From the NCBI GenBank assembly GCA_016184045.1, contig JACPDM010000003.1, positions 1-37,937 of the forward strand: a DNA stretch of 37,937 nt, read 5' to 3'. Source of the DNA: Micavibrio aeruginosavorus. Lineage in GTDB: Bacteria; Pseudomonadota; Alphaproteobacteria; Micavibrionales; Micavibrionaceae. Below the pieces are notes generated by a model. The model was not told the origin of the DNA and did no database searches. It saw only the letters and a program-made list of their open reading frames with translations. Positions 78-3,511 of the stretch are shown here, piece by piece. A program made the position numbers and the translations under genes. Positions within the stretch are counted from its first letter, which is position 1; every line of letters begins with the position of its first letter.

Positions 78-1160
78 TCAGGGCTGGCTCTTGACGCCGA
101 GGTTAAACGTTGCCGCTGTGACCTGACTGCTCGTCCAGGCTGCACTCGTATTCGGGTTGGTGTTCCAGACATAGCTGAAATTCTCATAACCCAGCTCTAG
201 CGGGATGTCGCTTGGCGATGTGTAATCAACGCCGCCTGTGCGCAGGGAGAACCGGAAATTCTGCGGCCCCGTCGTACTTCTTAACAACCGCCCCGATTGC
301 ACGACTGCCTGAACCGCCCAGTTTGACGACACGGGCAGAGTCGCCGGAACCGTAAACTGGGCGAGTTGCCCGGCGGTGCTTGAACTGATGAGATTCAGTT
401 CGCTAAGGATGTTCTCATTGATATCGCTGACCGCCCCGGTCCAGGCCATAGTATTGCCGTTTGCGACCGGCGCGCGCGTCAGCAATCTCATAAGCCTTGA
501 ATCGGTCGTTGAAACAATAACCTGGCTATAGAATGTCGTGGAACTAGTCTGACAACTTCCCAACTTGATCTGGGCCAGCGATGTCTGCCCGTCTGTCGTA
601 ACATCGCCGGAATAGGTGCCGATCTGATTTCCGTTCATGTAAATCGTGATCTCCCCGGCAGCGGCGTAATTGATAAAGACATCGTAAGTATGCTGCGGAT
701 TCATATCAATATTGCCGGTGGAGGTGCCTAGCAGCGTGACCGTGCCGGCGGCATCTCTTTTGTTAATGCTGATCAGGGGCGTTGCCGAGGCCGTCGTCGG
801 ACGGAGAATGAGCCTGTCAACACCGGCGCTGTCCGTAAACTTGATCCAGTCCTTGTTTGCATCGCAAGCGCCACCACTATCCAGGATGTGCCGGAAACGC
901 ACCCAGAAGAGCGATGAGTTTGCGAAAACGCCTGTTTTCAAGAACTCGCTTGCTGTATTGGGTGCAACGCCCTGCCGGGAAAATGTGTTGTCAAAATAAG
1001 TTGTGTTGCTGGTGCCTTTAATTCCACCCACGCCTTCAATCGTAAAGTCCATTTCCTCCCCGCCTGCCCACAGGATAGCTGCCGAAGCTGAATGCGCCCC
1101 AAGGAGCGTCGCGCAAAGGAAAGTGGCGACGAATAAATGTTTTAGAAAACCGTTCATCAT
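78..1160 (-). CDS. secreted protein with concanavalin/LamG-like and phage-tail-type domains
   Basis: ORF 78..1409; the likely start is the internal MMNGFLKHLFVATFLCATLLGAHSASA signal peptide at 1160. Body has a LamG-like segment (HTYDVFINYAAAGEITIYMNGNQIGTYSGD) and a C-terminus (RTGGVDYTSP...VWNTNPNTSAAWT..) resembling (pro)phage structural proteins. Confidence 0.65.
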   Translation of the reverse strand: MMNGFLKHLFVATFLCATLLGAHSASAAILWAGGEEMDFTIEGVGGIKGTSNTTYFDNTFSRQGVAPNTASEFLKTGVFANSSLFWVRFRHILDSGGACDANKDWIKFTDSAGVDRLILRPTTASATPLISINKRDAAGTVTLLGTSTGNIDMNPQHTYDVFINYAAAGEITIYMNGNQIGTYSGDVTTDGQTSLAQIKLGSCQTSSTTFYSQVIVSTTDSRLMRLLTRAPVANGNTMAWTGAVSDINENILSELNLISSSTAGQLAQFTVPATLPVSSNWAVQAVVQSGRLLRSTTGPQNFRFSLRTGGVDYTSPSDIPLELGYENFSYVWNTNPNTSAAWTSSQVTAATFNLGVKSQP

Positions 1161-1171
1161 CAGGCTCCTTG

Positions 1172-1837
1172 TTATAGTTTTATCCCGGCAAGGGTGATCG
1201 CAATATCGGCCAGCGCGGCATCGGCGGCAGCCGGAAAAACATATTCCACCAGGTCGCCCGCCGCGAAACTGATCGCCGCTGAAAATGTGAATGTGCAGGT
1301 CTTGGACGCGGCCGCCCATACGGCAGTGCCGATGGCGGTTGTCGATGCGCCGCTGATCTTGTTGAGGGTGACGGTTGTGGAGGCGCTGGCGGCGGTCTTG
1401 GCGACGCATTGCGAATTCGTCAGGTTCACCGGCAACTGCACCGCGCGCGGAATGACAATCCGGATAATCGAACTGTTATTGGGCGTGCCGGGCATGAACG
1501 CAGCGATGTCATAAACGCCGCTGCTGCTGCCGCCAATATTCGCCCAGCTTGTGCCGTTGCACCACTGGACCACGCCGCTGCTGTACCGGATTCCGCCCGC
1601 CCAGGTCGCGCTGCACGCCAACGCGGTGGTGCCAAGAATCAAAGGCTGCTGCACCCATGTTCCGCCGGAGCATGCATATAAGGCATTATTGACGGCGCTC
1701 TGCTGCGCCTGAAAGCCTTCCTCGTTAATCATCCCCGTACAGGCTCCGCCGCCGCCGACGGGCGGGAACTGCGCCAGAGCCGGGGTGGCGCAGATCAAAA
1801 AACAGGCCAGCACAAAGAACAGAGCAGCGTATTTCAT
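1172..1837 (-). CDS. secreted protein with phage-tail-like C-terminal domain
   Basis: Likely start at 1837 giving signal peptide MKYAALFFVLACFLICATPALAQ; contains IRYSSGVVQWCNGTSWANIG motif and C-terminal FAAGDLVEYVFPAAADAALADIAITLAGIKL typical of phage tail-associated proteins; GGGGG ribosome-binding site upstream. Confidence 0.65.
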   Translation of the reverse strand: MKYAALFFVLACFLICATPALAQFPPVGGGGACTGMINEEGFQAQQSAVNNALYACSGGTWVQQPLILGTTALACSATWAGGIRYSSGVVQWCNGTSWANIGGSSSGVYDIAAFMPGTPNNSSIIRIVIPRAVQLPVNLTNSQCVAKTAASASTTVTLNKISGASTTAIGTAVWAAASKTCTFTFSAAISFAAGDLVEYVFPAAADAALADIAITLAGIKL

Positions 1838-1851
1838 CGCATCCCCCATAG

Positions 1852-2060
1852 CAAAAACGGTCACCAGATTTCTCTGGCGACCGGGGATTGGAAACCGTTG
1901 AATTAGAAACGGCGTGACGGTCTTTTTGACCGAAGCCATTGGACATACACCGTCACTCCCCGGTCAAAAACCGAGAAGTGACATCCTTGGCACTACCTTT
2001 GTTAAGGACAGCACCAATCACGGCTGATGCCAGCCGCTAATTCCAAGGGGTTTCCACGCC
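1852..2060 (-). promoter_or_regulatory. candidate structured 5' leader / attenuator (or sRNA) upstream of the 1172..1837 gene
   Basis: Series of hairpins on the minus strand: 1987-2017, 1952-1982, 1918-1932, 1858-1883; the last has a GAAA loop and is followed by TTTTT. Confidence 0.5.
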
Positions 2061-2194
2061 CCGGGCCGCTCCTGCGAACGACCTTTCTAAACGATATCAG
2101 GAACGGCTTAAGAATCAATCAATATTTGTATCCGCAGACACGGGAACCCGGATATAGACCCTGTCAAATCAGATAGCGCATCGCGAACCCGCGC

Positions 2195-3511
2195 CTAAAC
2201 CCGCGGCAGCAGCGACGCCGCCGGGCTGTCTTTGGGCAGGCAGTGGGCGATGATTTTGGCGTCGTGCAGATGATAGCGCCCGAACAGGGAGCGGCGCGGG
2301 AAGGAAACCGCCCATGCGCCGCGGTCAATACGCTCGCCGAAAAACGCCGCGCTCTGGAATCCGGCGCGGATCGTGCCGTCCTGCCCGGGGTTTTTGTGCC
2401 TCTCGATCAGAAGCGGCAGGCGCAGCGTCGTTCCCCCCGGGCTTTTCAAATCGGCGTAAAGCGGCACATCGTTTTCCGCTCTTGCGCCGGAGCGGTCAGT
2501 GCGAAAGCTGAGGAGAAGCGCGACATTGACAACCGGTCCGGAGGCATCCGGCGTTTCCAGCCGCGCCCCGCCCTGCGCGGCGACGGTCATGGCCTGAGCG
2601 CCCGTTCCCGCCGCCGCGACCTGTTTCAGCCGCAGCGCCAGCGGCGCATCGTCAAGAAAACCGAAACCGGAACGAGCCATGTCGAAAACAAGTCCGGCGC
2701 GGTTGCGGATCAAATCCCCGCCGCGCGGCTTGTTATCCTGCGCCGCCATCAGGACGGCGGGAAGAATGTCATAGGGCGTCATCCCGGCAAGATCGGCGCT
2801 ATGATGCATGATCATCGCTCCGGCATGCGGTGTCGCGAACGATGTTCCGAAGATATTTCGCACAACGGCGCCCGCACGCTCCGAAGCCATCGCCGGGCTG
2901 CATCCATAGCCCCTTTGCCGCACGTGGTTGAAGAAATCGTCAAGCTCCTTCTGCGACGGATAAAACCTGAACCCGTAGCCGGGATCGAGATGGAAAGGAT
3001 GACTGCAAAGGAAAGCAGGGCCGGAGGCCTGCGATTCCGCCTGCGGGGTTCCGTCCCTTTTAGCCTCGCCGACGCGGATATAGCCTGGCAGGCTGTGGAG
3101 CATAGACAGGCTGTCATGGGCGCGCCGCGCCCTCCAGTCCGCGCCGTGGTTGCCGACGGCGCGGAGGACCAGCGTCTTATCCGCCGCAACCGCGTCCGCC
3201 GCGGGGGAATCGTGATTGTCCCGGTAACTGGTGCTGATGGTGATCAGCCGGACCGCCGGATGCGCCGCCGCCGCCCTGAAAATATCGGTGAGCGCCGCAG
3301 GGGAATCGAGCAGGCCGCAATCCCAGCCCCGCGCTTCCGCCGCCAGCGGACGGCGCAGGATTTCGGCGCAAAGCTGCCCGTGGCGCCGGATCTGCCCGCC
3401 CTCCAGCCACAGCCCGCTCTGGTATTCCATATGCAGGGCGACCGGGCGGGCATGGTCCGGGGCGCGGAGAAGCGCGCGCAGGCGCGGATCGGTAAAATAG
3501 TTGATTTCCAT
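2195..3511 (-). CDS. subtilase (S8-like) family protein, degenerate catalytic triad
   Basis: GTSFATPHAGAMI (Ser motif), RRHGQLCAEIL (His-like motif), AVGNHGAD (oxyanion Asn-like); no clear catalytic Asp motif. Confidence 0.65.
   Translation of the reverse strand: MEINYFTDPRLRALLRAPDHARPVALHMEYQSGLWLEGGQIRRHGQLCAEILRRPLAAEARGWDCGLLDSPAALTDIFRAAAAHPAVRLITISTSYRDNHDSPAADAVAADKTLVLRAVGNHGADWRARRAHDSLSMLHSLPGYIRVGEAKRDGTPQAESQASGPAFLCSHPFHLDPGYGFRFYPSQKELDDFFNHVRQRGYGCSPAMASERAGAVVRNIFGTSFATPHAGAMIMHHSADLAGMTPYDILPAVLMAAQDNKPRGGDLIRNRAGLVFDMARSGFGFLDDAPLALRLKQVAAAGTGAQAMTVAAQGGARLETPDASGPVVNVALLLSFRTDRSGARAENDVPLYADLKSPGGTTLRLPLLIERHKNPGQDGTIRAGFQSAAFFGERIDRGAWAVSFPRRSLFGRYHLHDAKIIAHCLPKDSPAASLLPRV

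What the first reader, a model, noticed from the sequence alone, without database searches (positions are those of the whole stretch)
1852..2060. Strongly structured minus-strand leader ending in a terminator-like hairpin: candidate attenuator, riboswitch or sRNA
On the minus strand, hairpins follow one another: TTGGTGCTGTCCTT-AACA-AAGGTAGTGCCAA (1987-2017, one bulged U), GTCACTTCTCGGT-TTTTG-ACCGGGGAGTGAC (1952-1982), CGGTC-AAAAA-GACCG (1918-1932) and CGGTCGCCAGA-GAAA-TCTGGTGACCG (1858-1883). The last has a GNRA tetraloop, is followed directly by TTTTTGC, and lies ~15 nt upstream of the likely ATG at 1837. Every imperfect pair in these stems is G.U on the minus strand and would be A.C on the plus strand, which argues that the minus-strand RNA is the functional molecule. 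I could not match it to a riboswitch class I know.
Basis: partly seen in the sequence, partly recalled or inferred. Interest (0 to 1): 0.68.

Follow-up and report, generated by a model that had tools for sequence, protein, structure and literature searches.

The report
Phage-immunity-type antisense RNA leader
A 212-base RNA leader in front of a secreted-protein gene carries a small antisense RNA and its own matching target, the layout that bacteriophages use to keep their antirepressor genes silent; this chromosomal version has its own transcription terminator and sits in many copies in front of unrelated genes across a group of predatory bacteria.

Summary
The hairpins are real and belong to one larger RNA (minus strand ~2083-1853) that ends in a terminator 15 nt before the ATG of a secreted protein (1837-1175). 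The 3' half (1965-1879) is a distant, sub-threshold relative of sRNA-Xcc1 (RF02221). Homologues occur in 104 of 142 Micavibrionales genomes, 1-9 copies each, nearly always directly upstream of an SD+ORF; the genes are unrelated to one another. Covariation supports a three-way-junction core shaped like the C4/CI antisense RNAs of phages P1/P4, plus a two-part upstream target (b1 loop, a1 site) complementary to the core. That complementarity is locus-specific (own -30 vs foreign -16 kcal/mol; own best in 21/22); all 22 a1 sites differ, and G-U pairs are ~1% there against 3-29% in other helices. The same core motif occurs in 31 viral-contig stretches; 9 of 10 viral next genes tested are antirepressor-family. 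Viral loci lack the terminator (0/22), which 16/37 genomic loci have. I conclude: a C4-like self-targeting antisense leader, shared with phages, probably working by attenuation. Anatomy and covariation are shown; termination control is inferred. Not a metabolite riboswitch on present evidence. New variant of a known kind.

The parts
2091..2122 (-). sigma-70-like promoter: -35 TTGATT (2118-2113, or the overlapping copy 2122-2117), -10 TATCGT (2096-2091); start near 2083
   Evidence: in 19 of 22 homologues the best -10 ends 20-36 nt upstream of the target hairpin; for the window itself 15% of shuffles score as high, so the promoter is inferred mainly from conserved position
2064..2083 (-). 5' hairpin P0 (GGTCG..GAGCGGCC)
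   Evidence: MFE fold; a differently sequenced hairpin occupies this position in homologues
2047..2062 (-). target hairpin GGGG-[CGTGGAAA]-CCCC; its loop with the following CC is the b1 site (2056-2049)
   Evidence: 3 of 4 stem pairs show double changes; b1 pairs with core 1896-1889, 98.9% of cells paired, 13/10/12 of 22 sequences double-changed at three positions
2037..2044 (-). a1 site GGAATTAG, complementary to the loop of core hairpin P3c (1906-1900)
   Evidence: perfect 7-10 bp complement in all 22 homologues, all 22 different, 1.0% G-U
2021..2036 (-). hairpin A CGGCTG-GCAT-CAGCCG
   Evidence: 100% of cells paired, one double-changed pair
   Evidence: 7 of 8 pairs double-changed, 90.9% paired
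   Evidence: 89.7% paired, 8 of 13 pairs double-changed; mutually exclusive with P1c
1879..1965 (-). antisense core, distant sRNA-Xcc1 (RF02221) relative: three-way junction P1c (1965-1957 with 1887-1879), P2c (1956-1950 with 1920-1914), P3c (1913-1894), single-stranded J3/1
   Evidence: RF02221 match 1871-1965, 27.2 bits against threshold 53; P1c 94.9%, P2c 100%, P3c 96.2% paired with double changes
1853..1883 (-). intrinsic terminator CGGTCGCCAGA-GAAA-TCTGGTGACCG-TTTTT; its basal pairs share bases with the P1c 3' strand
   Evidence: 93.2% paired, 5 pairs double-changed; -20.7 kcal/mol with the shared strand, -8.2 without
1841..1847 (-). Shine-Dalgarno region GGGGGAT
   Evidence: sequence; can pair with core TCCCC, but only weak locus-specific signal in this clade
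1175..1837 (-). regulated gene (inferred): 221-aa secreted protein, no family match
   Evidence: signal-peptide-like N-terminus read from sequence
78..1160 (-). second secreted protein (360 aa), 11 nt after the first gene's stop, possibly in the same operon
   Evidence: no family match

Best explanation
This is a 5' leader that works like the C4 (phage P1/P7) and CI (phage P4) immunity RNAs. A short antisense RNA core, a distant relative of sRNA-Xcc1, is transcribed with its own two-part target just upstream and an intrinsic terminator just downstream, followed by the SD and the cargo gene. By default the leader pairs target with core in cis. This leaves the base of the terminator free to form the full 9-11 bp hairpin, so transcription mostly stops and the gene stays off. 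The released short RNA (~230 nt, perhaps processed to a ~90-nt core) can pair in trans preferentially with its own target sequence. If the core instead folds as a free three-way junction, its P1c helix takes the lower 4-5 bp of the terminator, which predicts read-through and gene expression. What moves the leader between states (target occupied by another core copy, RNA dosage, a protein, Rho) is unknown. Shown: anatomy, covariation of both folds, locus-specific target-core complementarity, shared-strand competition, position before genes, kinship with RF02221 and with phage loci. Inferred: transcription start and termination in vivo, direction of control, trans action.
For: RF02221 matches full length (1-87) in all 17 Micavibrionales genomes tested, at the element loci, up to 48.6 bits. 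P1 c4 and P4 CI match RF01695, and P1 is annotated promoter-a1-b1-C4-a2-b2-icd-ant. The core fold has 96.3% of cells paired and 23 of 40 pairs with double changes, 0 of 500 shuffles; slid controls reach 29-55%. The target-core helix is 98.9% paired with double changes and almost no G-U. Own-versus-foreign pairing: -30.2 vs -16.3 kcal/mol, own best 21/22; independent loci -42.3 vs -30.4; paralogues within a genome -42.8 vs -32.5, p 9e-8. sRNA-Xcc1 loci across Pseudomonadota have the same upstream sites and SD-overlapping downstream sites. The same core motif is in 31 viral-contig stretches, and 9 of 10 tested viral next genes are P22_AR_N/ORF6N/Bro-N. Terminator: lower stem shared with P1c in most homologues; the target-core fold is 14-38 kcal/mol more stable in 22/22 and keeps 7-10 terminator bp in 20 of them. 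SD+ORF within 75 nt in 25 of 28.
Against: No expression data for this locus; promoter score alone is weak. The trans step is not shown: cis pairing is so stable that the upstream helix could be a purely structural part of the leader. SD-overlapping a2/b2 sites, present in phage loci, are weak or lost in the Micavibrionales set (a-loop energy p 0.69; J3/1 p 0.007), so translational control as in P1 C4 is not supported here. The direction of control rests on folding energies. RF02221 and RF01695 thresholds are not reached in the window.
Confidence: 0.72

Rival explanations
1. A stand-alone trans-acting sRNA gene with its own terminator; the gene behind it is there by chance or uses another promoter, and the RNA regulates unlinked mRNAs.
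For: Promoter, compact RNA and terminator form a complete sRNA gene; sRNA-Xcc1 is described as an 88-nt sRNA (PMC2996969) and homologues are expressed in Xylella (PMC12189769).
Against: SD+ORF directly behind in 25 of 28 and in most of 63, same strand; terminator-SD spacing is short; the complementary target lies in the same leader.
Confidence: 0.12
2. A metabolite- or ion-binding riboswitch with the multi-helix domain as aptamer.
For: Complex conserved fold, terminator sharing a strand with the domain, many loci.
Against: Downstream genes share no pathway; the a1 site is different in all 22 sequences although its pairing is perfect; no Rfam riboswitch match; phage relatives precede antirepressors.
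Confidence: 0.06
3. An RNA antitoxin or addiction module (type I/III-like) guarding a toxic product downstream.
For: RNA-terminator-ORF layout; in Xanthomonas integrons sRNA-Xcc1 lies upstream of symE (PMC12444791).
Against: Cargo includes outer-membrane barrels, lipoproteins, surface proteins and a type I methyltransferase, not a toxin family.
Confidence: 0.05
4. A DNA-level structure: an attC-like recombination site or end of a mobile element, with perfect inverted repeats kept by template switching rather than by RNA pairing.
For: Near absence of G-U in a1/b1 helices; sRNA-Xcc1 occurs in integrons; own genome has one strong integron-integrase match on another contig.
Against: The other helices carry many G-U pairs on one strand only (228 G-U vs 21 A-C); seven related genomes tested have elements but no integron integrase over cut-off; promoter and terminator placement.
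Confidence: 0.03

Closest known systems
sRNA-Xcc1 (RF02221)
   Same: Core three-way junction with the same P1/P2/P3 order and J3/1; full-length sub-threshold matches at the element loci; its loci also have complementary sites upstream and lie before accessory or phage genes.
   Different: Here the core has a different P2 (GUAUGUCCAA..UAAAG), is followed by an intrinsic terminator, hairpin C competes with P1c, and downstream SD sites are mostly lost. Score 27.2 bits against threshold 53.
C4 antisense RNA of phages P1/P7 and CI RNA of P4 (RF01695, with c4-a1b1 RF03163 and isrK RF01394)
   Same: Order promoter - target hairpin with b1 in its loop - a1 - antisense core - gene; three-helix core with target-binding loop and junction. 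P4 CI acts by transcription termination (PMC4825925).
   Different: No RF01695 match in the window; one relative (G001:C2) scores 31.2 bits, below threshold 45. Cargo is not an antirepressor or replication operon; the terminator lies after the core.
C4-like Group 1 sRNAs of Acinetobacter baumannii (PMC5320573)
   Same: Many C4-type copies in one chromosome, variable target-binding loop.
   Different: Those match RF01695 and are treated as sRNAs processed from longer transcripts, not as terminator-ended leaders of diverse cargo genes.

Membership tests
sRNA-Xcc1 (RF02221) | Match over the curated gathering score (53 bits) | tested here: not met
   27.2 bits in the window; best relative 48.6
sRNA-Xcc1 (RF02221) | Same consensus structure: P1, two inner hairpins, J3/1, over the full model | tested here: met
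   Full-length alignment 1-87; P1c/P2c/P3c supported by covariation
C4 antisense RNA (RF01695) | Match over the curated gathering score (45 bits) | tested here: not met
   No match in window or own genome
C4 antisense RNA (RF01695) | Complementary target sites a1/b1 upstream of the core on the same transcript | tested here: met
   (sequence complementarity; co-transcription inferred)
C4 antisense RNA (RF01695) | Target sites a2/b2 at the ribosome-binding site of the controlled gene | tested here: inconclusive
   clear in RF02221 loci, weak in Micavibrionales
C4 antisense RNA (RF01695) | Processing from a precursor and antisense action shown experimentally | not testable with these tools
   needs RNA mapping and reporters
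C4 antisense RNA (RF01695) | Controls a phage antirepressor or immunity gene | tested here: not met
   cargo here is a secreted protein without family; met in viral relatives
Metabolite riboswitch | Conserved ligand-binding domain with regulon of one pathway | tested here: not met
   diverse cargo, hypervariable pairing site
Integron attC site | attC in an array next to an integron integrase | tested here: not met
   no integron-integrase match on the window's contig C157; seven related genomes with elements lack one over cut-off

The most novel reading that the evidence does not exclude
A phage immunity circuit has become a portable silencing leader: each cargo gene carries its own orthogonal antisense/target/terminator unit, so every copy in a genome is regulated only by itself. 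Such a gene would be expressed in a cell that lacks its RNA (for example just after transfer) and shut off as the RNA accumulates, giving self/non-self control of acquired genes. The sRNA-Xcc1 family as a whole would then be C4-like self-targeting RNA rather than a virulence sRNA with many unlinked targets.
Probability: 0.3. Interest if true: 0.85.

Novelty: new variant of a known kind. Interest (0 to 1): 0.72.

Why it matters
It links an unlisted, multi-copy leader family of predatory bacteria to phage immunity RNAs, gives a concrete self-targeting explanation for the poorly understood sRNA-Xcc1 family, and predicts dozens of mutually orthogonal, naturally evolved RNA attenuators whose specificity can be read from sequence. 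It also offers a handle on how accessory surface genes of Micavibrio are switched.

Tried and rejected
Rfam search at gathering and relaxed thresholds: only sRNA-Xcc1 is meaningful; engA, mir-101 and SAM-III hits are chance-level. Repeat in own genome: none, single copy. SD-site complementarity (a2/b2) as the main mechanism in this clade: tested, weak. Nested closing helix (columns 1-6/245-250) as the main P1: fails in 5 of 22 at column 245 where P1c pairs in 22 of 22. Defence-gene cargo as a general rule: only one clear type I methyltransferase among ten tested. Integron hypothesis: not supported. The 2011 sRNA-Xcc1 paper (PMC3256417) is not held. In the papers searched I found no report of sRNA-Xcc1 as a C4-like RNA, but that library lacks most subscription journals.

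Full report
OBSERVATION. The region folds far better than shuffled sequence (-124.1 against -87.1 kcal/mol, z -7.7). The fold shows they are parts of one domain closed by long-range pairing between about 2037-2064 and 1881-1906. G-U cells outnumber A-C cells 228 to 21 across the family, so the minus-strand RNA is most likely the functional form.

FAMILY. BLASTN found homologues in 43 of 95 relatives. The complete genomes G002 and G003 have the sizes I recall for M. aeruginosavorus ARL-13 and EPB, so the genus is probably Micavibrio; a named Micavibrio sp. UBA2020 contig carries an element. A profile of the first homologues matched some 63 elements in the loci fetched by then. A covariance model of core plus terminator (R1) finds 104 of 142 Micavibrionales genomes (80 of 98 good-quality ones) with 1-9 copies, and 31 of 192 alphaproteobacterial genomes with up to 11. 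The window's genome has one copy. The order name rests on the genus identification.

CORE AND KINSHIP. The window matches sRNA-Xcc1 (RF02221) over its whole length but at 27.2 bits against a threshold of 53. The same family matches element after element in 17 of 17 genomes, up to 48.6 bits. Covariation supports a three-way junction: P1c 94.9%, P2c 100%, P3c 96.2% of cells paired, with double changes; whole fold 96.3% with 92 double-changed cells against 26 in shuffles, and 29-55% when slid.

TARGET. Upstream lie a small hairpin whose loop (b1) is complementary to junction J3/1, and an a1 site complementary to the P3c loop. b1 x J3/1 is 98.9% paired with double changes in 13, 10 and 12 of 22 sequences at three positions. 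a1 is a perfect 7-10 bp complement in all 22, all 22 are different (mean identity 0.34), and G-U pairs make up 1.0%; in b1 0.6%, in other helices 3-29%. Own target beats foreign targets: -30.2 against -16.3 kcal/mol, best in 21 of 22; in an independent set -42.3 against -30.4; among paralogues of one genome -42.8 against -32.5. A purely structural stem could covary too, but would be expected to pass through G-U; strict Watson-Crick, hypervariable pairing is what a specificity-determining antisense contact predicts. This is an inference.

COMPARISON WITH PHAGE SYSTEMS. Phage P1 is annotated promoter - a1 - b1 - C4 - a2 - b2 - icd - ant. P1 C4 and the P4 CI region match RF01695, with RF03163 (a1,b1 targets) or RF01394 (isrK) upstream. 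P4 CI acts by premature transcription termination through upstream and downstream target sites (PMC4825925). Testing 24 RF02221 loci from across Pseudomonadota, I find the same plan: own upstream pairing -31.9 against -25.9, own downstream pairing at the next gene's SD -23.1 against -18.7; several next genes look like phage regulators by reading. The Micavibrio core motif occurs in 31 viral-contig stretches and 38 alphaproteobacterial ones. Nine of ten tested viral next genes are P22_AR_N, ORF6N or Bro-N. A terminator-like hairpin follows the core in 16 of 37 genomic and 0 of 22 viral loci. So there is a phage form (antirepressor, SD sites, no terminator) and a cargo form (terminator, diverse genes); the window is the cargo form. 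Direction of transfer between phage and chromosome was not tested.

SWITCH. The lower 4-5 bp of the terminator use the 3' strand of P1c in most of the 22; losing them drops the hairpin from about -18 to about -10 kcal/mol (window -20.7 to -8.2). The terminator itself covaries. Forcing target-core pairing is 14-38 kcal/mol more stable than forcing the free core in all 22, and keeps the terminator long (7-10 bp) in all but L010 and L040. For the window, prefix folding reaches the target-core fold before the terminator is made. Default termination follows from energies alone and is not shown in cells. Hairpin C, which traps the core's 5' strand, is also conserved.

CARGO. Directly behind the terminator is an SD and an ORF in 25 of 28 and in most of 63 elements. 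Cargo includes outer-membrane barrels, Lcl_C and laminin-G surface proteins, lipoproteins, GIY-YIG, a PD-(D/E)XK-like protein, CpXC, an HTH protein and a type I methyltransferase; about half have no family. Here it is a 221-aa secreted protein without a family.

WEIGHING. The family, its fold, its specific self-complementarity and its kinship with sRNA-Xcc1 and phage loci are computed results. That it attenuates transcription, that it acts in trans, and which way it switches are inferences. SD sites are weak in this clade, so I favour termination over translation control. It is not a member of RF01695 (threshold not met) and not a confident member of RF02221 (threshold not met, structure met), but it works like them. 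Novelty: a new variant of a known kind.

Noticed in passing
G000:C35:4-1200: The window's own genome has an integron-integrase match over the curated cut-off (321.9 bits) on another contig; seven related genomes do not.
   Followed up: no
L035, L048, L052, L062: A second subfamily of elements with an sRNA-Xcc1-like P2 (AAUAUAAUAGCGC..) and the best RF02221 scores (45-48.6 bits), also before cargo genes.
   Followed up: partly
L029:2964-3546, L030:2445-3076, L126:6015-6324: Tandem copies of the element a few hundred bases apart in the M. aeruginosavorus-like genomes and Nitratireductor indicus; in L029 the second copy's core pairs better with the first copy's upstream region (-47.1) than with its own (-35.1).
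   Followed up: partly
L129, L141, L145, L155, L161, L168, L170: A recurrent 76-90 aa protein (RRxYxAxWKFRIGQAVRxGELxAIVLSRxRSAMG) directly behind the core motif in viral contigs and a Rhizobium; no Pfam match for the one tested.
   Followed up: partly
window 2021-2036 and 1979-1986: The loop and 3' side of hairpin A (GGCATC) are complementary to the GATGCC-type sequence before hairpin C in homologues, with some covariation (L026, L056): possible pseudoknot or further alternative pairing, not counted formally.
   Followed up: no
L048:4103-4201 minus: A DUF3800-V RNA (RF02964, 44.8 bits, over threshold) lies about 1 kb from an element.
   Followed up: no
window 2195-3511 minus: Subtilase-like protein (weak Peptidase_S8 match) upstream of the leader, next to an EAL-domain gene on the other strand.
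   Followed up: no
L101 (Acinetobacter phage 4316): An unannotated sRNA-Xcc1-like RNA 41 nt upstream of a KilA-N gene.
   Followed up: partly
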